DNA of 41,265 nucleotides from Desulfamplus magnetovallimortis (GTDB lineage Bacteria; Desulfobacterota; Desulfobacteria; Desulfobacterales; Desulfobacteraceae), in assembly GCF_900170035.1 (NCBI RefSeq), contig NZ_LT828545.1, positions 1 to 41,265 on the forward strand, given 5' to 3'. The stretch's first letter is position 1. Each line of letters begins with the position of its first letter. Under the pieces are notes generated by a model. That model was not told the DNA's origin. It ran no database searches and saw only the letters and a list, made by a program, of their open reading frames with translations. The translations under genes were made by a program, and so were the position numbers. Shown one piece after another: positions 2 through 34,586 of the stretch.

Positions 2-262
2 GGAAGTTTTAGGCCCAATGGATTTGGTTTATATGATATGCTTGGTAATGTATGGGAGTGGTGTCAGGATATATATGCGAGTGATGCCTATAGTAAACAT
101 GTCCGTAATAATCCTATATATGCAGAGAGCGGCTCCTACCGGGTGGTTCGTGGCGGCAGCTGGCTCGACAGACCCGCCCTCGTTCGCTGTGCCATCCGTT
201 ACTGGGGCACGCCGGTCAACACGAATGGCTACTTGGGTTTCCGTCTTTCCAGGAAAAATTAA
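2..262 (+). CDS. FGE-sulfatase/C-type-lectin-fold protein, C-terminal part (DGR target, 5' end outside window)
   Basis: This is the 3' end of a gene that begins before the window. The frame is open from base 2 and ends at a stop at 260-262. The visible residues are typical of the C-terminal formylglycine-generating-enzyme (FGE)-sulfatase fold: NGFGLYDMLGNVWEWCQD, then RGGSW, then RCA, then LGFRL. The last third is a variable repeat (128-252). True FGE enzymes carry two catalytic cysteines between GGS(W/Y) and RCA. Here that stretch has none and is occupied by residues the DGR can change, so a binding rather than enzymatic role is likely. The end is almost identical to those of the two caspase-FGE fusions at 14019 and 17314, but whether this protein also carries a caspase domain cannot be seen. 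It lies directly upstream of the DGR accessory genes, the usual place for a cis target. Confidence 0.85.
   Translation, partial: GSFRPNGFGLYDMLGNVWEWCQDIYASDAYSKHVRNNPIYAESGSYRVVRGGSWLDRPALVRCAIRYWGTPVNTNGYLGFRLSRKN
128..252 (+). repeat. DGR variable repeat VR1
   Basis: This 125-nt stretch aligns without gaps to the template repeat at 2337-2461. I count 18 mismatches, and every one is at an A in the template (changed to T, G or C); there is no mismatch at C, G or T. That is the signature of adenine-specific mutagenic retrohoming. Changed codons lie mainly in the RGGSW-to-LGFR loop region of the encoded C-type lectin fold. The last ~21 nt are identical to the TR and should contain the initiation-of-mutagenic-homing (IMH) site; similarity stops sharply after the final CCAG. 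Confidence 0.96.
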
Positions 263-347: not shown

Positions 348-364
348 TTCCGGCGAAGCCGGAA
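348..364 (+). other. Hairpin downstream of VR1 (DGR cruciform or terminator)
   Basis: A perfect 7-bp inverted repeat, TTCCGGC-GAA-GCCGGAA, begins 95 nt after the end of VR1, inside a ~110-nt 3' segment that is conserved behind all three VRs. VR2 has the same hairpin at exactly the same distance. DGR targets in phage BPP-1 need a hairpin/cruciform just downstream of the IMH, but there it is only a few bases away. The stem is followed by AAAAATTTTT, so intrinsic termination of the target gene is an equally good reading. Confidence 0.6.
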
Positions 365-402: not shown

Positions 403-963
403 GTGGCAGTCAAAATACTTACTGTGCCCTTTGATAACGTAAACGAAACCTTCCATGATGATATATTAAACCAGTTTATGGCAGGCAATATTGTAAAACA
501 GGTTAAATATGACTTTTTTATGTCATGTGCAAATCCCTACTGGACTGTATTTATAGAGTATGAGCCACTTTTTGATACATATGAGAATGAAGCATTGGAA
601 GAGCTGAGTGCGGCTGAAAAAGAGCTATTAGAAAAACTGTTTGAATTTAGAAAAAAAATAGCTGAAAAAGATGGTTTGCCCTCTTTTATTGTAGCAACTA
701 ACAAGCAATTAAAAGATGTGGTAAAGAATCGTCCAATGACCATTGAACACCTTAAAATGATCAATGGTTTTGGAGCAAAAAAAGCAAAAAAATATGGCCA
801 TGCAATTATTAATATCGTGAAATCCTACTCTCCGGATAAGAAAACAAATATAAGAGTTGATAATAATAATGAAAAAGATAGCAAAAGTAGTATAAAAGAT
901 AAGCAGAATCCGGATACCCATATACAGAACCAGGATGAATTACCTTTTACACCTGACACATAA
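403..963 (+). CDS. HRDC-domain DGR accessory protein
   Basis: A protein of 186 aa with a GTG start, preceded by TAGGAGAG at 391-398. Residues ~67-145 match the HRDC (helicase and RNase D C-terminal) fold: a helical LEKLFEFRKKIAEKDGLP segment, then FIVATNKQLKDVVKNRPMT and the hairpin-like INGFGAKKAKKYG. HRDC domains bind nucleic acid. Stand-alone HRDC proteins are one of the two known accessory families of DGRs. The C-terminal ~40 residues are polar and probably disordered. It sits between the VR1 target gene and avd/RT, all on one strand, and is likely cotranscribed with them. An exact biochemical role is not established. Having both an HRDC and an Avd accessory in one cassette is notable. 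Confidence 0.85.
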   Translation: MAVKILTVPFDNVNETFHDDILNQFMAGNIVKQVKYDFFMSCANPYWTVFIEYEPLFDTYENEALEELSAAEKELLEKLFEFRKKIAEKDGLPSFIVATNKQLKDVVKNRPMTIEHLKMINGFGAKKAKKYGHAIINIVKSYSPDKKTNIRVDNNNEKDSKSSIKDKQNPDTHIQNQDELPFTPDT

Positions 964-996
964 TATAACAAAAAAAATCTCTTGATATTAAAACTT

Positions 997-1326
997 ATGA
1001 GTCCAAGATATCCCATATTTGAACACTGGTACAAAACTCTTGACTGGATACTGGGAGCAATTGAAAAATACCCTAAAAATGCAAGATTTTCAATTGCATC
1101 CAGAATAGGAAGTATATCACTTGATGCCATGGAACTGTTAATTGAGGCCATTTACACAAAAAATAGAAAACCGATTCTGGATCAATTCAATATGCAGCTT
1201 GAAAAACTTCGCATTTTTTTCAGGCTGTCCCATGACAGACGTTATATATCAACGGTACAGTACGGATATATTTCAAAGGCCATAGATACTGCCGGAAAAA
1301 TGGCAGGAGGCTGGAAAAAATCATGA
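997..1326 (+). CDS. avd: DGR accessory variability determinant Avd (four-helix bundle)
   Basis: A protein of 109 aa, taking the ATG at 997; an in-frame TTG at 982 would add five residues, and neither start has a clear ribosome binding site. The sequence has the Avd pattern: an N-terminal helix containing YKTLDWILGAIEKYPKNARF, then IASRIGSISLDAMELLIEAIY, then LEKLRIFFRLSHDRRYIS, and a C-terminal GKMAGGWKKS. Avd forms a positively charged pentamer of four-helix-bundle subunits that binds the reverse transcriptase and template RNA and is needed for cDNA synthesis in phage BPP-1. The stop codon overlaps the RT start (ATGA at 1323-1326), so the two proteins are probably translationally coupled. 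Confidence 0.9.
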   Translation: MSPRYPIFEHWYKTLDWILGAIEKYPKNARFSIASRIGSISLDAMELLIEAIYTKNRKPILDQFNMQLEKLRIFFRLSHDRRYISTVQYGYISKAIDTAGKMAGGWKKS

Positions 1327-2336: not shown

Positions 2337-2461
2337 AGCGGCTCCAACCGGGTGAATCGTGGCGGCAGCTGGAACAACAAACCCGCCAACGTTCGCTGTG
2401 CCAACCGTAACAGGAACACGCCGGACAACACGAATAACAACTTGGGTTTCCGTCTTTCCAG
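2337..2461 (+). other. DGR template repeat (TR)
   Basis: A non-coding 125-nt template, 33 nt downstream of the RT stop and on the same strand. Adenines are concentrated in AAC, AAT and AAA triplets in the frame used by the targets (for example AACAACAAACCCGCCAACG), which lets adenine mutagenesis change about 14-16 codons without producing ochre or amber stops from AAY. It is the parent of VR1 (128-252), VR2 (15861-15985) and VR3 (19414-19538). All three alignments are gap-free over the full length, and similarity to VR flanks ends abruptly on both sides. The short reading frame running through it is only the image of the target genes and has no start signals of its own. Confidence 0.96.
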
Positions 2462-2859: not shown

Positions 2860-4452
2860 ATGACTGTTGATTTACCCAACCTTCCTACAGGCAAATCATC
2901 CTTTGAAAAAATTCGTACCAATGGAGATATTTATGTGGATAAGACCCGTCATATATTTCAAATGATAAATGATGGACAATATTACTTCATATCGAGACCA
3001 GGAAGGTTTGGAAAATCCCTTTTTATATCCACCCTGCGAAGCCTTTTTCAAGGGAGAAAGGAGCTGTTTGAAGGGCTGTGGATTTCAGAGAACAGAGTGT
3101 GGCAGTGGGAAAGTCACCCTGTAATATTGATAGATTTTAACCAGATCACCCTTAATAACAGCAGTGATTTTGAACGAGGGATTGCAATAAGCCTTGAAAA
3201 TACAGGTAAACAATATGGAATAACTCTTAAAGAGACTTTTATTAAGGAGCGCTTTAAAGAGTTGATTACAGGCCTTTATGACAAGACCGGAATGCCAGTT
3301 GTAATTCTTGTTGACGAGTATGACAAACCCATAATTGAACATCTTGGCAGAGGGGATGAAGCCCTTGAAACGGCAAAGGCCAACCGTGATATTCTGCGTT
3401 CCTTTTTTGGGGTTATCAAGGGCGGTGATGTTGCCGATGTTTTGCGATTTGTATTTATTACAGGTGTCTCCAAATTCAGCCGTGTCTCCATATTTTCAGA
3501 ACTTAATAATCTCACCGACCTTACCATGCACAAAAGATATGCCGAGATGTTCGGCTACACCCAGACCGAGCTTGAGAGCTGTTTTAAGGGGCATATCAAC
3601 CGATTTGCCAGAGATTATGGGAAAACACACGAGCATATCATTGAAAAGATGCAAGCCATGTATAATGGATATCGCTTTTCAGAAGCCAATGTTCATGTCT
3701 ATAACCCTTTTTCCGTCTTGAGGGCACTTGATGAGATGGCATTTAAAAAATACTGGTTTGAAACCGGTACTCCCACCTTTCTTGTTAATCTGCTCCGTGA
3801 AAAAAAATGGTACCCGCCTGTAATTGAAAACATGCACGCCACAGAATCTCTGTTCAGTGTTTATGAAATTGAAAGACTCCAGCCTGAAGCTCTGCTGTTC
3901 CAGACAGGTTACGTAACCATTAAAGAGATTAGAGGAAGCCTCTATACCTTTGATTATCCCAACAGAGAAGTAAAAACAGCATTTCTGGAAAACCTCTTTT
4001 TTTCATATACTGATGATGTTCAGGAAAGAGTGCTTTTTGCCCTGCTTGCTGAATATCTTGAAACTGAAGATTTAAATGGTTTTATTGACACCATGATCTC
4101 AATATACGAGTCCATACCCAATACCCTTGAGGGTAAACGGGATGAAGCCTATTTTCATACCATATTTTATCTTATGGTTTCAGCATCCGGAATAACAGCC
4201 AGAAGCGAAGTCTTGACATGCAAGGGAAGAATTGATCTTTTAATGGAATTTAAGGATAAAATTTACATTATTGAATTTAAATGCAACCAGAGTGCCGATG
4301 CTGCCATAAAACAGATTCGGGATAAAGGTTATGCTGTCCCCTACCTTAAAACAGGAAAAGATATCCATCTAATGGGCATTAACTTTGATTCTGAGAAACG
4401 CAATATATTGGATTGGAAGCATGAAGCATTCTTAAATAATTTAGATGGTTAA
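2860..4452 (+). CDS. AAA-ATPase-like / PD-(D/E)XK nuclease (PDDEXK_9) protein
   Basis: A protein of 530 aa with an ATG start behind AAGGAGCATCC. The N-terminal region belongs to the AAA-ATPase_like family: the P-loop is RPGRFGKS (residues 46-53) and the Walker B-like strand is VVILVDEYDKP (~146-156). The C-terminal end (about 450-475) has GRIDLLMEFKDKIYIIEFKCNQ, the D...ExK active-site pattern of the PDDEXK_9 nuclease family that usually completes these proteins. No signal peptide, so cytoplasmic. The family is often multicopy in anaerobes and its job is unknown; mobile-element or defence roles have been suggested. It is flanked by repeat-rich spacers and is not obviously in an operon. Confidence 0.85.
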   Translation: MTVDLPNLPTGKSSFEKIRTNGDIYVDKTRHIFQMINDGQYYFISRPGRFGKSLFISTLRSLFQGRKELFEGLWISENRVWQWESHPVILIDFNQITLNNSSDFERGIAISLENTGKQYGITLKETFIKERFKELITGLYDKTGMPVVILVDEYDKPIIEHLGRGDEALETAKANRDILRSFFGVIKGGDVADVLRFVFITGVSKFSRVSIFSELNNLTDLTMHKRYAEMFGYTQTELESCFKGHINRFARDYGKTHEHIIEKMQAMYNGYRFSEANVHVYNPFSVLRALDEMAFKKYWFETGTPTFLVNLLREKKWYPPVIENMHATESLFSVYEIERLQPEALLFQTGYVTIKEIRGSLYTFDYPNREVKTAFLENLFFSYTDDVQERVLFALLAEYLETEDLNGFIDTMISIYESIPNTLEGKRDEAYFHTIFYLMVSASGITARSEVLTCKGRIDLLMEFKDKIYIIEFKCNQSADAAIKQIRDKGYAVPYLKTGKDIHLMGINFDSEKRNILDWKHEAFLNNLDG

Positions 4453-5587: not shown

Positions 5588-6970
5588 ATGAAAAAACAGA
5601 TCATGCTTATTTTTATAACACTTCTAACAATAAATGCTGTTGCAGTATCTCTATTTGCTTCCCAGAGCAAGGATATCAATGTGCTTCCGGTTAACCACTC
5701 CAATCCCTTTGCCATTGATGTCTGGATTGATAAAAGCGCCGTAAATACAGGAGATTTCATTACTGTATCTTTCAGGGCTTCTGTGAACTGTTACCTTGTT
5801 CTTGTTGATCATGGATCATCAGGGAATATGAGTATCATCTATCCCAATCAGTTTTCAGGGCCTGACAATTACATTCAGGCCGGAAGGGTATATACTTTCC
5901 CAGCATCTGATGCCGGTTTTAAATTCAGGATTTCCGGCCCGGCCGGAGAGGAGAGTATCCTTGCCTATGCATCATTGAGATCCAATACCGTGGCCGAACG
6001 CCTTGGCCTCACCCGTGGCATATCAGGCTTTAAATCTGTGAATCAGAAGCAGTTTAAGGATATAGTTGTTGAAGAGAGCAGAAACAGCTCAAGTGGTGAG
6101 TGGGCTACAGCAAGAAGAGATTTCATGGTAATCGGTGGTTCCCAGGGAAGCGGCACCATTTACCAGCAGCCCCAATCCATCCAGGCAGATGAGCTCAGAC
6201 CAAGCCCCAATGCATACAGTTCCATATTTCTCCTTTCAGTGGGAGTGAGTACAGGAGAGCTGAGGGGTTGCGAAAACGATGCCAGGGATTTTGCTCGGGT
6301 AATGGGAAGATCTCTTGGTGTTCCGACAGGAAATATTAAAATCATATCCGGTGAATCTGCAACATTAAACGGTATCCGCAAGGGATTTGAATGGGCAAGG
6401 CAGAATATGGACAGTAAGGATATGTTTATCTACTATTTCAGCGGCCATGGAAGTTACATTGCAGACAATAACGGCGATGAGGTAGATGGTTATGATGAAG
6501 TACTCCTTCCTTATGGTTTTAACGCAAATGACATAACCACCATGATCATTGATGATGAGCTTGGCCAGTGGCTCATGAAAATTCCTGGAAACAAAAAAGT
6601 GGCCATTATAGATGCCTGTCACAGTGGTACCATTACAAAAGCAGTAAATAACTGGAAAACAAAATCATATAAAGGCGGTGTTTTAGGGCAGGGAAAACCT
6701 TCGGCCTCCATAGTATCAAAAAGCGGACATGGCACAGGCGAATTTGGCCAGGCACTGCTTGCAGCCACTACAGATGCCCTGCAAGCCCTGGAGATAAACG
6801 GCAGGGGGCTTTTTACGTTTGAAATGATTAAGGCCATTGAGGGCGGGGCACCTGATCTCAACAGTGCTTTTAAAATGTCGAGGGCAAGGGTACTGGAGTT
6901 GTCTGCAAAACAGCAAGACCCTGTTATCACCGATCCGGCCGGCTTGTCATCAAAGATACTTTTTCGATGA
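5588..6970 (+). CDS. Secreted DUF4384-caspase (peptidase C14) protein
   Basis: A protein of 460 aa with an ATG start after GAAAGGAAAATAGA. A signal peptide spans residues 1-25 (cleavage near LFASQS). A DUF4384 domain follows at ~40-135 (AIDVWIDKSAVNTGDFITVSF, MSIIYPNQF), then a caspase-like domain at ~212-455. The catalytic His287 is in YYFSGHGS and Cys344 in IIDACHSG. The acidic motif DNNGDEVDGYDEVLLPYG between them is typical of metacaspases and may bind calcium. Such enzymes usually cleave after Arg/Lys, but specificity here is unknown. The order DUF4384-then-caspase is the reverse of the protein at 9068. Likely exported to the periplasm or cell surface and part of the same operon-like run as its neighbours. 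Confidence 0.9.
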   Translation: MKKQIMLIFITLLTINAVAVSLFASQSKDINVLPVNHSNPFAIDVWIDKSAVNTGDFITVSFRASVNCYLVLVDHGSSGNMSIIYPNQFSGPDNYIQAGRVYTFPASDAGFKFRISGPAGEESILAYASLRSNTVAERLGLTRGISGFKSVNQKQFKDIVVEESRNSSSGEWATARRDFMVIGGSQGSGTIYQQPQSIQADELRPSPNAYSSIFLLSVGVSTGELRGCENDARDFARVMGRSLGVPTGNIKIISGESATLNGIRKGFEWARQNMDSKDMFIYYFSGHGSYIADNNGDEVDGYDEVLLPYGFNANDITTMIIDDELGQWLMKIPGNKKVAIIDACHSGTITKAVNNWKTKSYKGGVLGQGKPSASIVSKSGHGTGEFGQALLAATTDALQALEINGRGLFTFEMIKAIEGGAPDLNSAFKMSRARVLELSAKQQDPVITDPAGLSSKILFR

Positions 6971-8970: not shown

Positions 8971-9067
8971 TGTTGATGGAGAGGAGGCAGAAGGTGAACT
9001 GAAAAGAATGAAAAGCAGAGGGGGCGAATCCCATATTCGCCCTGAAATCAATAGAGCCGGAGGGTGG

Positions 9068-10471
9068 ATGAAACGGATTTGCTGTTTGGTTATGCTTATA
9101 ATGGGCATACATACGGGAATAGAAATAGATAATTGTAATATTGCGTCTGCTGAGAATCGTGCCCTTCTTGTGGGGATAGGCAAATATCAGATTTCAGCGG
9201 TAAACCTTGAGGGCATTGATATTGATATTACCAATATGACGAAAATTGCTCAAAAGATGGGCTTTAAAAGGGAGCAGATCAAAATTGTCATGGATGAAGA
9301 TGCTACCCTGAACGGGATTGAGAAAGCATTTGAAGAGTGGCTCATCCAGGGGACTTCTGACTCAGACAAGGTGTTTGTCTATTACAGCGGGCATGGAGCA
9401 TATATAGAGGATAAAAACGGAGATGAGAAGGATCACCTTGATGAAATACTGGTACCTTACGATACTGTTGTAAACAGTGATGATCTGCTTCAAAATATAC
9501 TTGTTGATGACCATATTGGTGAGCTTGTACAAAAGATTCCTGCCGGACAGATTGTTTTTATGCTGGATTCCTGTCATAGCGGCACAGCCATAAAATCCCT
9601 TGCCAGCCAGGATAAATTCTTTCCATTGACTCTATCATCCAGAGTATTTGCTGAAAAAGGTGGAAATCTTGGGGAGAAGAGCTTTACAATAAAGGAGATA
9701 ACTGAAAAGTGCATACTTCTTGCGGCAGCTCAGGATGATGAAACTGCACAGGCTTCTAAGGAAGGAAGCCTTTTTACCCTTGGTGTGCTGAAGGCTTTCA
9801 GTGATTCAACAGGTTTCCTTACCCTTAAGGATATAGAGGATGTTTCCAGAAAGTATATTCTGAATAACCTGCCGCCGGAGAAGGTTCACAGGCCAAATCT
9901 CATGGGCAATGGTAAACTGAAAGATATCAATCTCATTGGCTGGTGTGGGCAGTCGCCCTCTACAGAAATTCCTTCATCATCTTCATCATCTTCATCGTCT
10001 TCATCATCTTCTTCATCTTCATCATTTGAAGCCATGAACGAGCTGATCAGCAGGAGACACTTCGCACTTGATATATGGGTAAAGTCAAATATACAAAAGC
10101 TTGGAGATATACAGGAGATTCGGTTTACTCCTCCCCAGAATGGCTATGTTAACATAATTGAAGTTGCTGAAGATGATGAGGCCATAACCGTACTCTTTCC
10201 AAACAGATATCATCCTGAAAATTATGTTAAAACAGGTGGTACCATTACAATACCTGACCAAGGGGACGGTTTTCGGCTAAGAGCAGTGGAAAAAGGCAAA
10301 ACCATGCTTGTGGTTGTCTTGACTGATGCAGATATAAACGGATACAGGGACGGCATGAAGGCCGGCAGTGCCATGTTCAGCGAATTGTCAAAAAAATCCA
10401 GATATAAAATCGAAGAAGCCGGTGCAAAGGGAAGATTGGGGGCAGGGTATCTGTTCGTTGAGATAAGGTAG
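9068..10471 (+). CDS. Secreted caspase-polySer-DUF4384 protein
   Basis: A protein of 467 aa from the ATG at 9068, preferred over an ATG 60 nt upstream because GGAGG precedes it closely and it begins a proper signal peptide (MKRICCLVMLIMG..., cleavage near ASAEN). Caspase-like domain at ~30-290: His109 in YYSGHGA, Cys169 in MLDSCHSGT, and the acidic motif DKNGDEKDHLDEILVPYD. A run of 17 serines (303-319), coded by TCA/TCT/TCG, forms a flexible linker to a C-terminal DUF4384 domain (~325-460; FALDIWVKSNIQKLGD, AITVLFPNRYHPEN). It ends 40 nt before the next start, so cotranscription is likely. Confidence 0.9.
   Translation: MKRICCLVMLIMGIHTGIEIDNCNIASAENRALLVGIGKYQISAVNLEGIDIDITNMTKIAQKMGFKREQIKIVMDEDATLNGIEKAFEEWLIQGTSDSDKVFVYYSGHGAYIEDKNGDEKDHLDEILVPYDTVVNSDDLLQNILVDDHIGELVQKIPAGQIVFMLDSCHSGTAIKSLASQDKFFPLTLSSRVFAEKGGNLGEKSFTIKEITEKCILLAAAQDDETAQASKEGSLFTLGVLKAFSDSTGFLTLKDIEDVSRKYILNNLPPEKVHRPNLMGNGKLKDINLIGWCGQSPSTEIPSSSSSSSSSSSSSSSSSFEAMNELISRRHFALDIWVKSNIQKLGDIQEIRFTPPQNGYVNIIEVAEDDEAITVLFPNRYHPENYVKTGGTITIPDQGDGFRLRAVEKGKTMLVVVLTDADINGYRDGMKAGSAMFSELSKKSRYKIEEAGAKGRLGAGYLFVEIR
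9974..10024 (+). repeat. Serine-codon microsatellite in caspase linker
   Basis: Seventeen consecutive serine codons made of TCA, TCT and one TCG, with a TCATCATCT-like sub-period. Length changes by slippage would usually stay in frame and change only the linker between caspase and DUF4384 domains. Confidence 0.85.
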
Positions 10472-14018: not shown

Positions 14019-15995
14019 ATGAGACCAGGAAAAACTTCTAAAACAATTCTGTTTTTATCGTTAATTCTCTTTTTTACATCACTGTCCATTGCCTTTGCGG
14101 AAAAGCGGATAGCCCTTGTAATAGGCAATGCAGCTTATAAATCCTCACCTCTGGCAAACACTGTAAATGATGCTGTGGATATGGAAGCAAATCTGAAAAA
14201 ATGCAATTTTGATGTTATCAAAATCACCAATGCAGACCAGAAAACCATGGATAGTGCAATAGACCGTTTCTATAAGAATCTCAAAAAATCTGATACAGGT
14301 CTCTTTTACTTTTCAGGGCATGGAATGCAGGTGGATGGTGAGAATTATCTTATCCCCATTGGTGCAAATATAAAAAGCGAATCTGATGTAAAATATGAGG
14401 CGGTAAATGCAGGAAGGATCCTTGGCAGGATGAAGGATGCAGCAACTCCCCTTAATATAATGATACTGGATGCCTGCCGCGATAATCCCTATAAAAGCTT
14501 TTTCAGATCCTCATCAAGGGGACTTGCCCGCATGAATGCCCCAAAAGGTGCGATTGTGGCCTATGCAGCAGCACCAGGCTCTGTGGCTTCCGATGGCGTA
14601 GATAGGGGCAGAAACGGAGTTTTCACAAAACATTTTCTCAATAATATGATGAAACCCGGATGGGCCATTGAAAAGGTTTTAAAGCAGACACGTATAGCTG
14701 TATCAGAAGAGACAGGCGGTAAACAGATTCCGGAAGAGAGATCACTTTTGACAGGGGATTTCATCTTTCTTGCCGGTGGTTATTCTGTGGTTGAATCCCC
14801 AGTAACCACAACCACAACAGTCACCTCCGCAGCTACAGGTTCACTGAATGTAAAAACAGAACCGCCAGGTGCAACCATCTTTCTGGATGACAAAAAACAG
14901 GGACGAGCTCCTGTTACAATATCAGGTCTTGAATCAGGCAATTATAAAATAAAGGCTGAGCTTGATAACTACATCCCCCAGGAGAAGAAATTAAAAATCA
15001 ATAATAACCGCAAGGCAGTTATATCTTTTTTCCTTGATCCCCTCTCCACAAAGGCAAAAATCTTTGTAAACACCACTCCGCCGGACTCCCAGGTTCGTAT
15101 AATGAATATTGTGGATAAGTTTTATAATGGAATAGAGCTTGATAATGGCAGATATGAGATAGAAGTATCCAAAGATGGATATAAGATGAAGACCCAGTGG
15201 GTGGAGATACAAAATGGAGAGGATCTGGATTTGTATGTGGAGCTTGAAAAGGAAGAGAAGGTGGTTATCCATAACACATCCGCGTCTGTAGGCATGAATA
15301 CACCCGATGCCGGTGATATTTGGAAAGAACCTGTGACAGGCATGGAGTTTGTCTGGGTTCCTGGTGGATGTTACATGATGGGCAGTAATTCAGGAGAATC
15401 CGATGAAAAGCCTGTGCACGAGGTTTGCCTGGATGGTTTCTGGATGGGGAAATATGAGGTTACCCAGGGTCAGTGGCAAAAGATAATGGGCAATAACCCT
15501 TCATCTTTTAGAAAAGGCGATGATTATCCAGTGGAAACTGTTTCATGGAATGATGCTCAGCAGTTTATCAGCAAATTAAATAGTGCAGGCGCAAAGATTT
15601 TTAGTTTGCCAACAGAAGCCCAGTGGGAATATGCAGCAAGAAGCGGAGGTAAAAATCAGGAGTATTCAGGCAGTAATTCCATTGATTCCGTTGCATGGTA
15701 TGGGAGTAACAGTGGCGGAAGTACCCACCGTGTTGGAACTAAAGCTGCAAATGGTTTAGGCATATATGACATGAGTGGAAATGTCTGGGAGTGGTGTCAG
15801 GACATATATGCAAAGGATGCTTACAGTAAACATGTCCGTAATAATCCTATATATGCAGAGAGCGGCTCCAACCGGGTGTTTCGTGGCGGCAGCTGGATCA
15901 ACGTACCCGCCTACGTTCGCTGTGCCAGCCGTAACGGGGACACGCCGGACTTCACGGATAGCAGCTTGGGTTTCCGTCTTTCCAGGAAAAATTAA
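14019..15995 (+). CDS. Secreted caspase-PEGA-FGE fusion, DGR target (VR2)
   Basis: A protein of 658 aa with an ATG start after AAGGAGG. Signal peptide 1-27 (ending IAFAEKR). Caspase-like domain ~28-252 with His101 in FYFSGHGMQ and Cys153 in ILDACRDNP. Two PEGA domains follow, ~274-341 (GSLNVKTEPPGATIFLDDK) and ~345-410 (AKIFVNTTPPDSQVRI); PEGA are small surface-type beta domains. The FGE-sulfatase/C-type-lectin fold spans ~435-658 (GMEFVWVPGGCYMMGS, GKYEVTQGQWQKIMG, PTEAQWEYAAR, GNVWEWCQD). VR2 codes for residues 615-656 and replaces the region where real FGE carries its catalytic cysteines. I infer a protease whose diversified C-terminal tip recognises ligands. It is closely related to the gene at 17314, most strongly in the FGE half. 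Confidence 0.93.
   Translation: MRPGKTSKTILFLSLILFFTSLSIAFAEKRIALVIGNAAYKSSPLANTVNDAVDMEANLKKCNFDVIKITNADQKTMDSAIDRFYKNLKKSDTGLFYFSGHGMQVDGENYLIPIGANIKSESDVKYEAVNAGRILGRMKDAATPLNIMILDACRDNPYKSFFRSSSRGLARMNAPKGAIVAYAAAPGSVASDGVDRGRNGVFTKHFLNNMMKPGWAIEKVLKQTRIAVSEETGGKQIPEERSLLTGDFIFLAGGYSVVESPVTTTTTVTSAATGSLNVKTEPPGATIFLDDKKQGRAPVTISGLESGNYKIKAELDNYIPQEKKLKINNNRKAVISFFLDPLSTKAKIFVNTTPPDSQVRIMNIVDKFYNGIELDNGRYEIEVSKDGYKMKTQWVEIQNGEDLDLYVELEKEEKVVIHNTSASVGMNTPDAGDIWKEPVTGMEFVWVPGGCYMMGSNSGESDEKPVHEVCLDGFWMGKYEVTQGQWQKIMGNNPSSFRKGDDYPVETVSWNDAQQFISKLNSAGAKIFSLPTEAQWEYAARSGGKNQEYSGSNSIDSVAWYGSNSGGSTHRVGTKAANGLGIYDMSGNVWEWCQDIYAKDAYSKHVRNNPIYAESGSNRVFRGGSWINVPAYVRCASRNGDTPDFTDSSLGFRLSRKN
15861..15985 (+). 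repeat. DGR variable repeat VR2 (trans target)
   Basis: A gap-free 125-nt match to the TR at 2337-2461. I count 14 differences, all at template adenines and none at C, G or T. Because drift would also hit other bases, this implies recent or repeated retrohoming from the TR 13.4 kb away. The 3' ~21 nt are identical to the TR, so the homing start site appears intact. Confidence 0.95.
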
Positions 15996-16080
15996 CTTTT
16001 AGCTTTTTTACCTTTTTACCTTTTGGGGGTTTTTGGTCGCGGAGTTCAACAACATCCTTGGGTTTGTCAAATATATAGAC

Positions 16081-16097
16081 TTCCGGCGAAGCCGGAA
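16081..16097 (+). other. Hairpin downstream of VR2
   Basis: TTCCGGC-GAA-GCCGGAA, identical to the hairpin behind VR1 and at the same 95-nt distance from the end of the variable repeat. The corresponding element behind VR3 (19629-19639) is reduced to a 4-bp CGGC/GCCG stem. Confidence 0.6.
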
Positions 16098-16130
16098 ATT
16101 TTTTTTAAAAAAATGAGATATGTTTGGTTA

Positions 16131-16337
16131 CTCAAAAACGACACCTATGAGCTTTTGGACCTTGTCAATACTGTCTGAATCAGGATGCCCAGGATAACCA
16201 GGATTTACAGGATAAAAATCTTGAGCATCCTGTAAATCTCGGTTATCCTGATTCAGACAAATTCAATATTCAGACAAATTCAATATTCAGATAAATTCAA
16301 TAAATGCCAAAAAAGCCAACAAGATGTCGATTTTGAG
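16131..16337 (+). repeat. MITE-like intergenic repeat, copy D
   Basis: 207 bp from CTCAAAAACGACA to TGTCGATTTTGAG, with inner inverted GTCTGAATCAGGAT / ATCCTGATTCAGAC pair and a short local triplication of TTCAATATTCAGA near 16260. It fills most of the spacer between the caspase-FGE gene and the nuclease gene and runs almost to the nuclease start codon. Copy E has the same left flank (GGTTA) and right flank (AGCTTATGG), so the two arose by block duplication. Confidence 0.85.
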
Positions 16338-16342
16338 AGCTT

Positions 16343-17284
16343 ATGGGTAATGTGATGGAGAATAAAAAAAGCAATAGGGCAACATCAATCCGCTGGCACA
16401 AGCTTCTTGGTCGAATGCTTGAGGAACTTCTGACACCTCTGAATATCACGGTGTTGACAGATATCTCTGTGATGACAGATCCACCCGAGGCAGATATCCT
16501 TTTAATAAGGCGTGATTTGCCTAAGTGGACATATGATCAGCTTTGTCGCCTTCCTGACGGGATAAGGGACACAGGTGCAAATCATATTCTTGTTGAGTTC
16601 AAGTTTACGGAATCCTTTAACAGAAATACGCTGAATCAGGCACTGGCATATGATACTTTTTTCAGGCGATCCCAGCAGTCGCTTAAAGAAAAGGATATTC
16701 AGACATTTGTCTTATGCTCCAAAACACCATTAAAGGCATCACGGGAGGAGTTTGGATACACGGAAATTTACAAGTCTGCTATTTATCACAGTACCAACCC
16801 TATGCTTGACAGGCTTTTTCTGATTGTCATCAATGAGTTATCTGATGCGACCCATAACGATTTTGTGAGATGCTTTTCAAGCAGAAAAACGAAAAGGTGG
16901 CATGCATTCAAGAGAATAATAAAATCTGGGAGTCAACGTATTTCCATAGCATTTCTTTATTTTATAAGCGGCATAATAAAACTTATGAGCAGCAGGGAAA
17001 AGGAGAGCTTTATCATGGAACAACAAGAGATAACTCCTGATGTTGTCATGGAGATAGGAAAGGAACTTTACGAGGCAATGCTGGATGGGCTGAGCATTGA
17101 TGATTTTATGGAAAGGTTCAGCGCTGAAGAGGTGCTTTCAAGATACAAACCGGAAGCGGTGCTATCGAGGTACAAACCTGAAGAGCGCTTGTCAGGATTA
17201 AAACCTGAAGAGCGCCTGTCAGGATTAAGTCTGAAGGAAATTGAGGCTTATCTAAAAAAAATGAAAAATCAAAAAGAGAACTGA
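16343..17284 (+). CDS. Probable PD-(D/E)XK (Rpn-like) nuclease with short C-terminal repeats
   Basis: A protein of 313 aa; starts at ATG 16343 or at an in-frame ATG four codons on, neither with a strong ribosome binding site. Residues 48-87 (PPEADILLIRR, then NHILVEFKFTES) give the D51...E85-x-K87 pattern of PD-(D/E)XK nucleases. The tail has 9-residue repeats: AEEVLSRYKP, EAVLSRYKP, EERLSGLKP, EERLSGLSL. Such tails are common on Rpn/PDDEXK-transposase-related proteins. No signal peptide, so cytoplasmic. It lies 29 nt upstream of the next caspase-FGE gene and is duplicated with it; whether the pairing is functional is unknown. Confidence 0.65.
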   Translation: MGNVMENKKSNRATSIRWHKLLGRMLEELLTPLNITVLTDISVMTDPPEADILLIRRDLPKWTYDQLCRLPDGIRDTGANHILVEFKFTESFNRNTLNQALAYDTFFRRSQQSLKEKDIQTFVLCSKTPLKASREEFGYTEIYKSAIYHSTNPMLDRLFLIVINELSDATHNDFVRCFSSRKTKRWHAFKRIIKSGSQRISIAFLYFISGIIKLMSSREKESFIMEQQEITPDVVMEIGKELYEAMLDGLSIDDFMERFSAEEVLSRYKPEAVLSRYKPEERLSGLKPEERLSGLSLKEIEAYLKKMKNQKEN

Positions 17285-17313
17285 GACATCCTCATCCCTG
17301 AAGGTACATCAGC

Positions 17314-19548
17314 ATGAAATATTCTGAATATTTTAAGAAGACATTGCTCATATTCCTAATCCTGATCTTACAGGGAGTTTTTATTACCCGTAACCATAGT
17401 TTTGCATCATCTGATGAAGGGAATGGAAGGAGAGCCAGTCGTGTTGCCCTTGTTGTCGGCAATGGTGCATATGAATTGGCACCCCTTAAAAATCCTGTGA
17501 ATGATGCAGTTGATATGAGGAATGCGCTTGAAAAATCAGGTTTTACTGTCATTTTAAAGGTAAATGCTGACAAGGCTTCCATGCTTTTTGCACTTGATGA
17601 ATTCAGTTCACATTTAAGGCATTCCGAGGCTTCCCTTTTTTACTATGCCGGACATGGAATGCAGATAAACGGCAACAATTACCTTATCCCACTGAATGCT
17701 CATATAACATCGGAAACAGATGTTGAGTTTGCTGCTGTCAATGCAGGCAGGGTACTTGGCAAGATGGAAAATGCCGGTAATGCTGTTAACATTGTAATTC
17801 TTGATGCATGCAGGGCAAATCCTTTCAAGAGAAGTTTCAGGGTTTCAGAGAGGGGGCTTGCTCGCATGAAAGCACCTGTCGGCTCCATACTTGCTTATGC
17901 TACGGCACCTGGTTCTGTTGCAGCAGATGGTTCTGGACGAAACGGCCTTTATACTTCTAAATTAATTCATTACATGATGATTCAGGGCTTAAAGATTGAA
18001 GAAGTACTTAAGAAAACTCGTGCAGATGTGATGCTGGAGGCACGAAACCTTGGAACAGATCAGGTACCATGGGAATCATCTTCTTTGACCGGTGATTTTT
18101 ATTTTATTCCACCGCGTTCAGAAGGAAGTTCAAAACATGAATTGCCTGAACCTGTAAATTCAAGCATCACTGATTTTAATGAAAATGCTTCTGAAATAAC
18201 AAAAAGAGAAGGCGAAAGTTCATTAAAGGCAGAATTTCTTTTCTGGCAGTCCATCATGAACTCCCATAACAGGAGACTTTTTGAAGCATATATCAAAAAA
18301 TATCCTGAGGGAGATTTTGTAGATATCGCAAAAATCAAACTTGAAGATTACAGCACTGACGAACCAGAAGCTGAACCAGAGCCTGATCAACAATCACAAC
18401 GGGAAAAAGAACAGACCAGTAATAAACCAAATTCTGCACAACCGGATAATGAATCTCAATCAATACAGCTTATTTCTTCTGTACAGACAGGTGTCATATC
18501 TCCGATGAAAACAGATGATTTACAGGAAGCGCAATCTCAACAACAGCCTCAATCACAGCCGGAAATAGCTGTTGTCTCCTCTTCTGCAACAAAGGAGATT
18601 CCCAATGGCACACTCCATGTGGATACCATCCCAGAAGATTCCAGGATAAGGATTATGAATATTAAACCCAAATATTATTCCGGCATAGAGCTTGTACCCG
18701 GCAAATACCATATTGAGGTATCCAGAGCAGGATACCGCACCAGATATCAATGGAAAAACATTGAACCAGGTCAGGAACTTGTTGTTTCTTTGGAATTGGA
18801 AAAGCTGCCTTCTCCAACTGAAACTTCTGTTGAATTTGAGAAATTGTCGTCCACACCAGAAGCTGGTGATACCTGGAGAGAACCTGTGACAGGCATGGAG
18901 TTTGTCTGGGTTCCTGGTGGATGTTACATGATGGGCAGTAATTCAGGAGACTCCGATGAACAACCAGTGCACGAGGTTTGCCTGGATGGTTTCTGGATAG
19001 GGAAATATGAGGTTACCCAGGGTCAGTGGAAAAAGATAATGGGCAATAACCCTTCATCTTTTAGAAAAGGCGATGATTATCCAGTGGAAAAGGTTTCATG
19101 GTATGATGCTCAGCAATTTATCAGCAAATTAAATAAGGCAGGCGGAAAGGCTTTTAGCTTGCCAACAGAAGCCCAGTGGGAATATGCAGCAAGAAGCGGG
19201 GGTAAAAATCAGGAGTATTCAGGCAGTAATTCCATTGATTCCGTTGCATGGTATGGGAGTAACAGTGGCGGAAGTACCCACCGTGTTGGAACTAAAGCTG
19301 CAAATGGTTTAGGCATATATGACATGAGTGGAAATGTCTGGGAGTGGTGTCAGGACATATATGCAAAGGATGCTTACAGTAAACATGCTCGTAATAATCC
19401 TGTATATGCAGGAAGCGGCTCCGGCCGGGTGGTTCGTGGCGGCAGCTGGGGCAACGAACCCGCATACATTCGTTGTGCCGGCCGTGACTGGTTCGCGCCT
19501 GGCGACACGGATCGCGACCTGGGTTTCCGTCTTTTCAGGAAAAATTAA
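17314..19548 (+). CDS. Secreted caspase-PEGA-FGE fusion, DGR target (VR3)
   Basis: A protein of 744 aa. Signal peptide ~1-31 (LLIFLILILQGVFITRNHSFASS). Caspase-like domain ~42-272 with His114 in FYYAGHGMQ and Cys166 in ILDACRANP. A linker (~275-430) contains a TPR-like LFEAYIKKYPEGDFVDIAKIK unit and then an acidic, Gln/Ser-rich stretch. One PEGA domain lies at ~432-505 and the FGE/C-type-lectin fold at ~520-744. VR3 encodes residues 701-742. Compared with the protein at 14019 it has one PEGA fewer and a longer disordered linker, while the FGE halves are nearly identical. The ATG at 17314 is 29 nt after the upstream nuclease stop, with GAAGGT as a modest ribosome binding site. Confidence 0.93.
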   Translation: MKYSEYFKKTLLIFLILILQGVFITRNHSFASSDEGNGRRASRVALVVGNGAYELAPLKNPVNDAVDMRNALEKSGFTVILKVNADKASMLFALDEFSSHLRHSEASLFYYAGHGMQINGNNYLIPLNAHITSETDVEFAAVNAGRVLGKMENAGNAVNIVILDACRANPFKRSFRVSERGLARMKAPVGSILAYATAPGSVAADGSGRNGLYTSKLIHYMMIQGLKIEEVLKKTRADVMLEARNLGTDQVPWESSSLTGDFYFIPPRSEGSSKHELPEPVNSSITDFNENASEITKREGESSLKAEFLFWQSIMNSHNRRLFEAYIKKYPEGDFVDIAKIKLEDYSTDEPEAEPEPDQQSQREKEQTSNKPNSAQPDNESQSIQLISSVQTGVISPMKTDDLQEAQSQQQPQSQPEIAVVSSSATKEIPNGTLHVDTIPEDSRIRIMNIKPKYYSGIELVPGKYHIEVSRAGYRTRYQWKNIEPGQELVVSLELEKLPSPTETSVEFEKLSSTPEAGDTWREPVTGMEFVWVPGGCYMMGSNSGDSDEQPVHEVCLDGFWIGKYEVTQGQWKKIMGNNPSSFRKGDDYPVEKVSWYDAQQFISKLNKAGGKAFSLPTEAQWEYAARSGGKNQEYSGSNSIDSVAWYGSNSGGSTHRVGTKAANGLGIYDMSGNVWEWCQDIYAKDAYSKHARNNPVYAGSGSGRVVRGGSWGNEPAYIRCAGRDWFAPGDTDRDLGFRLFRKN
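19414..19538 (+). repeat. DGR variable repeat VR3 (diverged trans target)
   Basis: A gap-free 125-nt match to the TR with about 21 differences at template adenines plus 6 at other bases: three within CGCATACATTCGTTGT, one in CCTGGCG, and two in the 3' segment that is identical in TR, VR1 and VR2. The non-adenine changes mean ordinary drift has accumulated since the last homing event, or that homing now fails because the 3' site is altered. Confidence 0.9.
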
Positions 19549-19686
19549 TTTTTAGCTTTTTTACCTTTTAGGTACTTTTGGTCGTTTGGTTCGACATTGG
19601 CGTGATGTTTACGAAATATATAGACTAACGGCGAAGCCGGGAAATTTTTTTTATAAAAATGAGATATGAGCTGATTTGTTTGGTTA

Positions 19687-19876
19687 CTCAAAAACGACAC
19701 CTGTGAGCTTTTGACCCTTGTCAATACTGTCTGAATCAGGATGCCCAGGATAACCAGGATTTACAGGATAAAAATCTTGAGCATCCTGTAAATCTCGGTT
19801 ATCCTGATTCAGACAAATTCAATAATCAGATAAATTCAATAAATGCCAAAAAAACCAACAAGATGTCGATTTTGAG
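19687..19876 (+). repeat. MITE-like intergenic repeat, copy E
   Basis: 190 bp, nearly identical to copy D with the same flanks, but with only part of the TTCAATA/ATCAGATAAATTC local repeat. It lies between the second caspase-FGE gene and the broken nuclease copy. Confidence 0.85.
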
Positions 19877-19881
19877 AGCTT

Positions 19882-20513
19882 ATGGATAATGTGATGGAGA
19901 ATAAAAACAGGAATAAAACAACATCAATCCGCTGGCACAAGCTTCTTGGCCGAATGCTTGAGGAACTTCTGACGCCTTTGAATATTACGGTGTTGACAGA
20001 TATCTCTGTGATTATCACAGTAGCAATCCTATGCTTGACAGGCTTTTTTTGCTTGTCATCAATGAGTTATCAGATGCTCCCCATAACGATTTTGTGAAGT
20101 GCTTTTCAAGCAGAAAAAGGCAAAGGTGGCATGCATTCAAGCGAATAATAGAGTCTGGCCGGCAACGCATTTCCATTGCATTTCTTTATTTTATAAGCGG
20201 CATAATAAAACTTATGAACCGCAGGGAAAAGGAGAGTTTTATCATGGAACAACAAGAGATAACTCCTGATGTTGTCATGGAGATAGGAAAGGAACTTTAC
20301 GAGGCAATGCTTGATGGTCTGAGCCTTGATGATTTTATGGAAAGATTCAGTGCTGAAGAGGTGCTTTCCAGATATGAGCCTGAAGAGGTGCTTTCAAGAT
20401 ACAAACCGGAAGTGGTGCTATCGAGGTACAAACCTGAAGAAGTGCTTTCCAGATATAAACCGGAAGATATTGAGGCATATCTGCAAAAATTGAAAAATCA
20501 AAAAGAGAACTGA
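19882..20513 (+). pseudogene. Broken second copy of the PD-(D/E)XK-like nuclease gene
   Basis: The first ~130 bp match the start of the gene at 16343 (ENKNRNKTTSIRWHKLLGRMLEELL...TDIS). The sequence then jumps from the equivalent of 16473 to that of 16784, a 310-nt deletion that removes the D...ExK active site and shifts the frame. The remaining 3' part is open from 20031 to 20513 (LDRLFLLVINELSDAPHNDF...) and keeps the tail, with four RYKPE-type repeats. Since 310 is not a multiple of three, a full-length product is not possible; a separate 160-aa tail fragment could still be made from the ATG at 20031. Confidence 0.85.
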
Positions 20514-20565: not shown

Positions 20566-22359
20566 ATGAGAAGTGCAATGATTGTCTTCTTTTTTGTTTG
20601 TGCAGTTATATACGCCATGCCCGGAGTATGCATTGCTGCCGGTCACGCACTTTTGATTGGTGTAAATGGTTCTGAGGGGACAAATTTGAACATTGCTCTA
20701 AAAGGCCCTTCCCATGATGTGGCTGCCTTAAAAAAACTGCTTGTTGAGCATTACGCTTTCCATGACAAAAATATCATCGCTCTTACAGGAAAAAGTGCTC
20801 TAAGGGCAACTATCCTAAAGGAGCTTGTAAAATTAAAGGAGAGAGCCTCAAAAGGAGATAATATATTTCTGTTTTTCAGCGGGCATGGAAGCAGTCCCTG
20901 TGATTTATCCCTTAACCTTCCATCATCTATCCAGGATGGCTGGGGAACAGGGTCGCCCTTTACAGGAGGACTTTTGCCATACGATTTTGATGAGACACGA
21001 CCTCTTGAAACAATGATCATGGGAAAAAGGGATCTGAGGCCAATTATTAGTGAATTGGATAAAAAATGTCATGTTTTTGCGGTGTTTGATGCATGTTATT
21101 CCCAGGATACAGTTCGTTCCCTTGAAAGTGAGAACAGGTCTGGAGTTGAAAACAGGTCATACTGCCGCGTAAAATACCGCAAGATTAAAATTCCTTCCTC
21201 TTCAAGAGGTTCAATGCTTGATGGAGATGAGGGGATTTCTCTTTCCCTTGAGCAGGGAGATATAAAAGATGATCATTTTGAAAATTCAGGGATATCTCCT
21301 TACAAAAACACAGTATATCTTGCCGCATCAGGGAGAAACGAAGAGGCTGAGGATATAACCAGCACACAGCCTCCCTTTGGTTTCATGACAGTTGACGGTA
21401 ATCCCCACGGAGTACTCACAAACAGCCTTTTAAAAGCCCTTGCATACAAAAAAAATGATGCCAACGGAGACGGCAAAAACGGAATCAGTTATGGAGAGCT
21501 GTTTGAATATGTGAGAATGGATATACACAGAAACCATTTCCGGCAGACACCCCAGAGTCTTTTGCCGGAAAATCCTTCACTTCTTCTTGATACTCCGGTA
21601 TTTAATACAGGCAATATTGCAACATCATCCCATCATAACGGTACAGGTAATGGTGAAAATTACCAGGAAGCTGCAATTCCAGATATTCATAGCATTTTAA
21701 GAATAAAGATTGAAAAGAGTGCAAGGGAGATCCTTGAGGATATTGAGTTGATAAAAAACATTGAACCTGTCCAAGATAAACCTGACATGATCGTCGTAAA
21801 AACAGGCACATTTTGGCAAATTGGTCTTCCCAGTGGAAGAATAGTCAAGGAGTATCCTGTTGCTGAAAAGGGGCGATTAATTAAAAGGATAGAGAGAGAG
21901 ACTCTGCTGTATGCCCTTAAAAATCCTTCTTTTTTTAATCGAGGTATAACTGTTTATGCAAAGCTTCTCACCGATTCGGCAACTCTTGTATCAGGAGAAT
22001 CAATTGGAATGGAGTGGCAGGCAGATCATAAATCACATATTTTTATAATCAATATTGATTCAGAAGGATTCATAAACGTATTGTATCCTTCAAAGGATAG
22101 CGAGTTTGAACCGCAGGCACCCAACGTGATTAAAAGGGTACCTTTTTTTGGCAGGGTTACTGAAAGTGGCATGGGATATGAACTTTTACAGGTGTACGCT
22201 TTCTTGGAAAAACCTTATGGTATGGAAAAATTCATGGATAAAAGCCTTGATCCAGTTGGGGATTCGGTTTTGTATGGTAATATGCTGAAGATGATCCGGC
22301 ATGGCATGGAGGTTGGCCTTGCAAGAACAACCATCTATTTTCAGACCTGTGGTGAGTAG
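20566..22359 (+). CDS. Secreted caspase-like protein with EF-hand-like insert and DUF4384-like C-terminus
   Basis: A protein of 597 aa with an ATG start after CAGGAGGAG. Signal peptide 1-25 (ending GVCIAAGH). Caspase-like domain ~26-345: His107 in LFFSGHGSS and Cys177 in VFDACYSQD. A calcium-loop-like segment, DANGDGKNGISYGE, lies at 298-311, near the end of the catalytic domain. After a linker, the C-terminal part (~465-560; ESIGMEWQADHKSHIFIINID, INVLYPS) resembles a diverged DUF4384. The caspase has a longer loop between His and Cys than its neighbours. It closes the one-directional caspase run; the next gene is convergent. Confidence 0.85.
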   Translation: MRSAMIVFFFVCAVIYAMPGVCIAAGHALLIGVNGSEGTNLNIALKGPSHDVAALKKLLVEHYAFHDKNIIALTGKSALRATILKELVKLKERASKGDNIFLFFSGHGSSPCDLSLNLPSSIQDGWGTGSPFTGGLLPYDFDETRPLETMIMGKRDLRPIISELDKKCHVFAVFDACYSQDTVRSLESENRSGVENRSYCRVKYRKIKIPSSSRGSMLDGDEGISLSLEQGDIKDDHFENSGISPYKNTVYLAASGRNEEAEDITSTQPPFGFMTVDGNPHGVLTNSLLKALAYKKNDANGDGKNGISYGELFEYVRMDIHRNHFRQTPQSLLPENPSLLLDTPVFNTGNIATSSHHNGTGNGENYQEAAIPDIHSILRIKIEKSAREILEDIELIKNIEPVQDKPDMIVVKTGTFWQIGLPSGRIVKEYPVAEKGRLIKRIERETLLYALKNPSFFNRGITVYAKLLTDSATLVSGESIGMEWQADHKSHIFIINIDSEGFINVLYPSKDSEFEPQAPNVIKRVPFFGRVTESGMGYELLQVYAFLEKPYGMEKFMDKSLDPVGDSVLYGNMLKMIRHGMEVGLARTTIYFQTCGE

Positions 22360-26649: not shown

Positions 26650-26737
26650 TTAATAGTATAGGAATTTCCATTTTTGGGAACAAAGAAGCCCGCCCGCAGG
26701 ACGCTAAGTTCATAAATATTATCATCTTGAATCATTC

Positions 26738-26857
26738 AAATCAATCGCAATAACCGTTTCCAAATCAATTGCAATAACCTCTTCCAAATCAATCGCAATA
26801 ACCTCTTCCAAATCAATCGCAATAACTTCTTCCAAATCAATTGCAATAACCTCTTCA
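26738..26857 (-). repeat. Five 24-bp tandem repeats, coding for an octapeptide on the minus strand
   Basis: Five direct copies of a 24-bp unit (AAATCAATCGCAATAACCTC then TTCC). On the minus strand, a small frame from an ATG at 26871 to a stop at 26722 reads five repeats of E-E-V-I-A-I-D-L (49 aa in all). There is no ribosome binding site, so it may be the tail of a lost gene or a mini-protein. Because 24 is a multiple of three, repeat-number change would preserve the frame. Confidence 0.8.
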
Positions 26858-30771: not shown

Positions 30772-30886
30772 ACTTTTCATGAACAATAAAGGGCTTCGAT
30801 TTGAAAGGTGTTGCATTGTCATTGCATGATTGCAGGGTTACTCTCTTACGATTCTTCTTGTTTGACATAAGTATTTTTTACTTTTG

Positions 30887-30996
30887 GAGTCGCATCTAAG
30901 GACGCATAGAGTCATATGTAAAGACGCCTGGAGTCATATGTAAGTACGCCTGGAGTCATATGTAAGGATGTCTGGAGTCATATGTAAGGGTGCCCC
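30887..30996 (+). repeat. Five 22-bp tandem repeats between livM and livG
   Basis: Five direct units of exactly 22 bp beginning GAGTC; four contain GAGTCATATGTAA with the CATATG palindrome and a variable 3' half, and the first is GAGTCGCATCTAAGGACGCATA-like. 22 bp is close to two helical turns, so each palindrome would face the same side of DNA. It lies in the 277-bp gap within the liv operon, so it may be a protein-binding array or simply a minisatellite. Confidence 0.85.
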
Positions 30997-34400: not shown

Positions 34401-34586
34401 TTTACCGTGAAAATGGATATAAATTTTCATATTCGGGGGTGGCTGGATGACAGCCATGACCGTTTACCGTGAAAATAGATACAAATTTTCATATTCGGGG
34501 GTGACTGAATCACAGCCATGACCGTTTACCGTGAAAATGACTATCATTTTTATATTTGGGGATGATTGATACGCAATCAATCATGC
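34401..34586 (+). repeat. Three 62-bp tandem repeats with changing stem-loops
   Basis: Three units starting TTTACCGTGAAAAT at 34401, 34463 and 34525. Each has a TGAAAAT...ATTTTCA-type hairpin, then G-rich TTCGGGG, then a second small stem whose sequence differs but stays paired: GGCTG/CAGCC, GTGA/TCAC and TGATTGAT/ATCAATCA. It ends with CATGACCG or CATGCCCG. Single inverted copies of the first hairpin lie at 4833-4868, 7661-7691 and 25390-25424. It directly follows recN. Confidence 0.8.

What the first reader, a model, noticed from the sequence alone, without database searches (positions are those of the whole stretch)
15861..19538. One TR serves three targets; two remote ones are tips of secreted caspase fusions
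VR2 (14 differences, all at TR A) and VR3 (about 21 at TR A) end two genes that fuse a signal peptide, a caspase-like protease with intact His/Cys, PEGA domains and an FGE/C-type-lectin fold. A hypermutation engine thus appears to diversify the recognition end of exported proteases about 13.4-17 kb away. Links between DGRs and NTP-dependent or multicellularity-associated conflict systems are known; a secreted caspase version with several trans targets is, as far as I can tell, little described.
Basis: partly seen in the sequence, partly recalled or inferred. Interest (0 to 1): 0.93.

Follow-up and report, generated by a model that had tools for sequence, protein, structure and literature searches.

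The report
One hypermutation element diversifies exported caspases
A bacterial "mutation machine" (a diversity-generating retroelement) rewrites the binding tips of a small set of apparently exported caspase-like proteases, one of them 13 kb away and one more that seems to have dropped out; this is a clear new case of a known kind of system that shows how distant targets may be kept or retired.

Summary
Confirmed and corrected. The window, the start of a contig of a 6.7-Mb genome (order Desulfobacterales by inference), holds a DGR: Avd, RT, one TR and three VRs. VR1 (18 of 18 differences at TR adenines) and VR2 (14 of 14) equal the TR at all 90 non-A sites; VR3 has 21 of 27 at adenines plus 6 drift-type changes. 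VR2 and VR3 end genes with a signal-like N-terminus, an intact-dyad caspase and an FGE/C-type-lectin tip. The VR1 gene, cut by the contig start, is complemented by another contig end carrying caspase, PEGA and FGE, so probably all three targets are such fusions. Before VR1 and VR2 the genes differ at 46% of synonymous sites, the VRs at none of about 30: strong evidence that VR2, 13.4 kb away, was rewritten from this TR. A hairpin behind VR1 and VR2 is found nowhere else in the genome and is broken behind VR3, which looks retired. Two related genomes show the same plan. Caspase-type, remote and exported DGR targets are each published, so this is a variant of a known kind. What the proteases bind or cut, and whether homing goes on now, is unknown.

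The parts
2..262 (+). 3' end of the VR1 (local) target gene; end of an FGE domain, cut by the contig start
   Evidence: FGE profile positions 169-253 here; the right end of contig C2 carries positions 4-169 of an FGE domain behind signal-like N-terminus, caspase and PEGA
128..251 (+). VR1
   Evidence: 18 of 18 differences from TR at TR adenines
348..364 (+). hairpin, 7-bp stem with GAA loop, 96 nt after VR1
   Evidence: only 2 matches at up to 1 mismatch in the held genome, both behind VRs; folding; gap
403..963 (+). HRDC-domain protein between VR1 gene and avd
   Evidence: PF00570 E 7e-18
982..1326 (+). avd accessory protein
   Evidence: NCBIfam NF033474 DivGenRetAVD 98.2 bits over cut-off 80; PF22296
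1323..2303 (+). DGR reverse transcriptase (YMDD; GLPIGNLTSQ)
   Evidence: PF00078; aligned with 8 RTs of other loci
2337..2460 (+). TR (template repeat)
14019..15995 (+). VR2 target: signal-like N-terminus, caspase (14103-14762), PEGA (14838-15023), FGE/C-type lectin (15345-15980)
15861..15984 (+). VR2
   Evidence: 14 of 14 differences at TR adenines, 0 of 90 non-A
16081..16097 (+). hairpin identical to that behind VR1, 96 nt after VR2
17314..19548 (+). VR3 target: signal-like N-terminus, caspase (17440-18102), FGE/C-type lectin (18898-19536)
19414..19537 (+). VR3
   Evidence: 21 of 27 differences at TR adenines, 6 of 90 non-A
19629..19639 (+). remnant of the hairpin (4-bp stem left)

Best explanation
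It is a chromosomal DGR. Avd and the RT copy the TR RNA with errors at adenines, and the mutated cDNA replaces VR1 next door and, in trans, VR2 13.4 kb away; a hairpin 96 nt behind each VR probably marks it as a target. VR3 is related to VR2 by a tandem duplication that carried the FGE end and the following gene; it was mutagenised at some time, then stopped being rewritten, probably together with decay of its hairpin, and now drifts. The products are exported caspase-like proteases with a C-type-lectin (FGE-fold, not FGE-enzyme) tip whose face is diversified. Shown by sequence: TR/VR relation, target architecture, homogenised non-A sites at VR1 and VR2. Inferred: export, current activity, hairpin function, retirement of VR3, and that the tip binds a ligand that recruits or triggers the protease at or outside the cell envelope. 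The confidence below is for the DGR reading with VR2 as a trans target; the function of the proteases alone would be about 0.4.
For: A-restricted differences. VR1-VR2: 5' flank differs at 15 of 111 bases (pS 0.46), VR at 0 of 90 non-A sites (pS 0 over about 30 sites), A sites 19 of 34 (Fisher 1.5e-4 for 0/90 against 15/111). VR2-VR3: non-A 6 of 90 against 28 of 561 in the FGE body (p 0.45), A sites 18 of 34; 4 of the 6 non-A changes are synonymous. Of 19 A-bearing TR codons 12 are AAC or AAT, which cannot give stops; one (AAA) could. Hairpin only twice in the held 6.68 Mb. Avd equivalog. Best PDB match of the tip by sequence and by fold is the DGR variable protein TvpA, 2y3c; the caspase part matches MALT1.
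Against: No population data, so present activity is not shown. The hairpin has a 3-nt loop and lies 96 nt from the VR, unlike the 4-nt GRNA loops at 4-34 bp of phage DGRs (PMC3240598, passages). Behind VR targets of other genomes a perfect stem of 7 bp or more was found in 8 of 21 cases, in none of the three of G083. The flanks of VR1 and VR2 are homologous anyway, so a shared hairpin is partly inheritance. In HSG16 the two VRs differ from the TR at 3 and 4 of 111 non-A sites, mostly near the ends. Export rests on hydropathy. Binding and protease activity are untested.
Confidence: 0.78

Rival explanations
1. VR2 and VR3 are only duplicates of the VR1 gene that drifted; the DGR does not reach them.
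For: VR2 and VR3 genes share a duplicated block from about 15300 into the next gene; VR3 non-A changes fit ordinary drift.
Against: VR2 equals TR at 90 of 90 non-A sites while its flank differs from VR1's at 46% of synonymous sites; its differences are confined to TR adenines.
Confidence: 0.08
2. All three VRs are current targets; VR3 is just slower or receives partial tracts.
For: 21 of 34 A sites of VR3 differ from TR, more than at VR1 (18) or VR2 (14).
Against: Six non-A differences spread over TR 2387-2458 were not erased; hairpin stem cut from 7 to 4 bp; the strict finder misses VR3.
Confidence: 0.25
3. The tips act in adhesion or kin recognition and the caspase part is structural or processes the protein itself.
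For: Neighbours with hydrophobic N-termini (DUF4384 proteins, OmpA protein); C-type-lectin tips of other DGR targets bind ligands (established knowledge).
Against: GHG and D-A/S-C motifs are present in 7 of 7 caspase domains aligned.
Confidence: 0.3
4. It belongs to the published NTP-dependent conflict systems (MoxR-vWA or STAND) and the caspases are their effectors.
For: DGR targets in other genomes found here include NACHT-FGE, KAP-FGE and TIR-FGE proteins; published link (PMC10907252, PMC7159879, passages). A predicted AAA-ATPase with a PD-(D/E)XK domain, a different family, lies right behind the TR (2860-4452).
Against: No MoxR, vWA or STAND domain among the 19 window proteins scanned with Pfam in their true frame; targets look exported. 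About a dozen further ORFs right of 22.4 kb were not scanned.
Confidence: 0.12

Closest known systems
Cyanobacterial DGR variable proteins with orthocaspase N-termini and remote targets (PMC7517822; sections 6 and 7 read)
   Same: Orthocaspase-like domain grafted to a C-terminal C-type lectin with a VR; dispersed paralogs; remote targets; some variable proteins with signal peptide or TM segment; one paralog with remnant TR-VR homology
   Different: Here another phylum, caspase-(PEGA)-FGE with signal-like N-terminus, probably in all targets of the element; the paper says most of its proteins are predicted cytosolic. Whether its orthocaspase targets are exported I did not see
Thiohalocapsa PB-PSB1 DGRs (PMC10907252; passages seen)
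   Same: Trans targets recognised by a perfect match to a TR at all non-A sites; FGE-fold tips; one target with a caspase-like CHAT and a TIR domain; one target with a signal peptide
   Different: Those are tied to STAND or MoxR systems, which were not found among the window proteins scanned
Cellular DGR targets of the global survey (PMC8144416; passages seen)
   Same: Most clusters of cellular targets have an N-terminal TM segment or signal peptide, so export as such is not unusual
   Different: The words caspase and peptidase do not occur in its main text; remote targets were outside its method
Treponema denticola TvpA, PDB 2y3c
   Same: FGE-type C-type-lectin fold with VR; best sequence and fold match
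   Different: The solved chain of 294 residues matched only the tip, not the caspase part
BPP-1 DGR target hairpin (PMC3240598; passages seen)
   Same: GC-rich inverted repeat behind the VR
   Different: Loop 3 nt not 4; 96 nt not 4-34 bp from the VR

Membership tests
Diversity-generating retroelement | RT of DGR type with Avd nearby | tested here: met
   RVT_1 and NF033474 Avd over cut-off; alignment with RTs of other loci, most of them with TR/VR pairs
Diversity-generating retroelement | TR/VR pair with differences confined to TR adenines | tested here: met
   VR1 18 of 18, VR2 14 of 14; VR3 21 of 27
Diversity-generating retroelement | Current mutagenic homing | not testable with these tools
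   no reads or cultures
DGR with trans (remote) targets | Remote VR identical to TR at non-A sites | tested here: met
   met for VR2 (90 of 90); not met for VR3 (84 of 90)
DGR target hairpin as in phage DGRs | 7-10 bp GC-rich stem, 4-nt GRNA loop close behind VR | tested here: inconclusive
   7-bp stem, 3-nt GAA loop, 96 nt behind VR1 and VR2; broken at VR3
Orthocaspase (Peptidase_C14, HC dyad) | C14 domain with His and Cys | tested here: met
Orthocaspase (Peptidase_C14, HC dyad) | Proteolytic activity | not testable with these tools
   needs purified protein
Formylglycine-generating enzyme | Catalytic cysteines (human C336, C341) | tested here: not met
   in the alignment to human FGE 2aft, a C336S mutant, the VR2 protein has Asn opposite 336 and a gap opposite 341; residue numbers counted by me; no Cys in these places in VR1 or VR3 either
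Exported protein | N-terminal signal peptide | tested here: inconclusive
   hydrophobic N-terminal segment in both window targets and no later one above threshold; no dedicated predictor
NTP-dependent conflict systems (MoxR-vWA, STAND) | MoxR, vWA or STAND partner or fusion | tested here: inconclusive
   none among 19 window proteins scanned, which include one predicted AAA-ATPase of another family at 2860-4452; rest of window and genome not tested

The most novel reading that the evidence does not exclude
One retroelement maintains a small repertoire of exported, antibody-like caspases: two loci kept in play (VR1, VR2) and one variant locked in (VR3) by losing the hairpin that marks targets, a genetic form of keeping a useful variant.
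Probability: 0.3. Interest if true: 0.8.

Novelty: new variant of a known kind. Interest (0 to 1): 0.55.

Why it matters
It gives a natural side-by-side test of what makes a distant VR a live target: three related flanks in one genome, two with an intact hairpin and no drift, one with a broken hairpin and drift. It also places hypermutable binding tips on caspases that look exported, in sulfate reducers and (by weaker evidence) in planctomycete and acidobacterial records, so caspase targets of DGRs are not a cyanobacterial oddity.

Tried and rejected
A single-sequence RT scan of genome contigs gave no relatives (37 stretches matched, none confirmed); the alignment query kept the best 80 of 569. 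A DNA search in the genus (10 genomes, own included) with 15300-16330 gave, in the rows listed, no FGE/VR match outside the own genome better than about 69-74% over short stretches; most rows are an interspersed repeat, and 40 of 603 candidates in the own genome were scored. PADLOC gave generic RT and caspase matches, and DpdF matches of the HRDC protein. Considered and rejected: FGE enzyme; drift-only origin of VR2; a second TR for VR3 (only one TR-like copy outside the VRs). Weaknesses of the relatives' survey: the caspase profile was built partly from the HSG16 proteins, so its two hits in L197 are circular; one of the 68 target ORFs (L197, 7 A sites) is probably spurious; in L137, L177 and one L167 target the reading frame ends oddly inside or behind the VR, so those genes may be broken or misassembled; only 16 of the 21 target ORFs were scanned with Pfam, and the FGE ORF beside the second RT of G083 (L100) never was.

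Full report
What is there. The window is the first 41 kb of a 286-kb contig (C6) of a 6.68-Mb genome, 97.3% complete. From left to right: the end of a gene with VR1, an HRDC protein, avd, RT and TR; then a predicted AAA-ATPase with a PD-(D/E)XK domain, DUF4384 proteins, two caspase-DUF4384 proteins, a DUF3160 protein and an OmpA protein; then the VR2 gene, a gene without Pfam match, the VR3 gene, a shortened copy of that gene, and a further caspase gene. Of ten proteins of this stretch tested for hydropathy, both VR targets included, eight have a hydrophobic segment starting within the first 17 residues; the caspase at 9008 has none and the DUF3160 protein has one at 29-36. Three genomes given as 'same order' have contigs of the same lengths as Desulfobacterales records (taxonomy of one), so the order of the host is inferred.

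TR and VRs. TR has 34 A in 124 bases. VR1 differs at 18, VR2 at 14, VR3 at 27 places; at TR A: 18, 14 and 21. The held genome gave no other copy. Twelve of 19 A-bearing codons are AAC or AAT.

Is VR2 reached in trans? The 111 coding bases before VR1 and VR2 differ at 15 places, 9 of them synonymous by count (pS 0.46), yet inside the VRs there is no synonymous difference over about 30 sites and no non-A difference in 90, with 19 amino-acid-changing differences, all at TR A. Copying of both from the same TR explains this; drift does not. The same logic was used for Thiohalocapsa (PMC10907252, passage).

VR3. Its non-A differences (6 of 90) match the divergence of the gene body from the VR2 gene (28 of 561, p 0.45), 4 of 6 are synonymous, and all six are changes of VR3, since VR1, VR2 and TR agree there. 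The hairpin TTCCGGC-GAA-GCCGGAA lies 96 nt behind VR1 and VR2 and nowhere else in the held genome at up to one mismatch; behind VR3 only 4 pairs are left. A block of 30 bases around the hairpin is identical between VR1 and VR2 in an otherwise diverged flank. I read VR3 as a retired target that kept its diversified sequence. Cause and effect between hairpin loss and retirement are not shown.

The local target. C2 ends, in the right orientation, inside a gene with signal-like N-terminus, caspase, PEGA and FGE profile positions 4-169 in the whole-genome search (4-142 in the Pfam scan); C6 starts with FGE positions 169-253 and VR1. By eye the ends share about 8 bases; no exact terminal overlap of 11 or more was found. 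So the VR1 target is probably a third caspase fusion. The part of the FGE domain on C2 differs from that of VR2 and VR3, and the VR3 gene has a different caspase part from VR2 (67% DNA identity over 296 aligned bases against about 95% in the FGE body), so the tip seems to move as a cassette between caspase genes.

Protein. The FGE tip matches TvpA best by sequence and by fold; the caspase part matches MALT1. The model has mean pLDDT 75.8, high in caspase and tip, low in the linkers; pTM 0.47, so the relative placing of the domains is not known. FGE catalytic cysteines are missing, and the place of one falls on a variable codon.

Relatives. Of 145 genomes searched, the own one included, 36 had an RT match at E 1e-20; I did not sort these into DGR and other RTs. 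Of 20 stretches fetched (chosen for RT or caspase-FGE, one of them the own C2 end), 13 gave a TR/VR pair. Their 21 VR target ORFs are listed; 16 were scanned with Pfam. Caspase-FGE: G083 2 of 3 and HSG16 2 of 2. The other 11 scanned: NACHT-type NTPase (two above a Pfam cut-off, one weak), one KAP, one TIR, five FGE or Mtd-type with no other domain over the cut-off, one without a match. G083 VRs: 0 of 70 non-A differences each over 99 bases; HSG16: 3 and 4 of 111, mostly near the ends of the compared stretch. In HSG16 (80% complete) the two hairpins are the only ones found. Among the best 80 named RT loci, 61 gave a TR/VR pair and 68 target ORFs; 8 ORFs in 6 loci hit the caspase profile, 6 in 5 loci not used to build it: Pirellulales, Kuenenia, Acidobacteria, a gammaproteobacterium (two) and Thermoguttaceae records. 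By eye three of these six have signal-like N-termini.

Literature. Searches over the open library led to cyanobacterial orthocaspase variable proteins (PMC7517822, two sections read), CHAT-TIR and FGE targets in Thiohalocapsa (PMC10907252, passages), FGE-fold tips in ternary conflict systems (PMC7159879, passages), DGRs with several VRs including one in Desulfobacter postgatei (PMC3521204, passage), exported cellular targets in general (PMC8144416, passages) and FGE-orthocaspase fusions (PMC6426788, PMC4933709, passages, in which I did not look for DGRs). In these I saw no description of caspase-PEGA-FGE DGR targets in Desulfobacterota, but subscription journals and supplements were not searched.

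Verdict. Observation sound, interpretation largely right but incomplete and somewhat oversold; a variant of a known kind with a useful natural experiment in it.

Noticed in passing
window 16128-16268, 19684-19824, 34860-35000 and elsewhere: A roughly 140-base interspersed repeat, partly matching its own reverse complement; most of the listed matches in the own genome to 15300-16330 fall in it, and it recurs in several sister species of the genus. Looks like a small non-coding mobile repeat.
   Followed up: partly
window 5588-6970, 9008-10471, 20566-22359: Three more caspase genes within 22 kb of the DGR, two with DUF4384; five of the nine Peptidase_C14 matches of the genome lie in this window.
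   Followed up: partly
window 2860-4452: Predicted AAA-ATPase with a PD-(D/E)XK domain directly behind the TR.
   Followed up: no
window 16343-17284 and 20031-20513: Duplicated gene without Pfam match behind both VR genes, with 27-base (9-residue) repeats near its end; the second copy is shorter.
   Followed up: no
window 34401-34524; 30885-30994; 26732-26856: Short tandem repeats with units of 62, 22 and 24 bases.
   Followed up: no
L137, L172, L177: Caspase plus C-type-lectin DGR targets with signal-like N-termini in acidobacterial, Pirellulales and Kuenenia records; the frames of L137 and L177 end oddly near the VR.
   Followed up: partly
G000:C10:111445-111945 and G000:C11:37136-37765: Further reverse transcriptases in the same genome, type not determined.
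   Followed up: no
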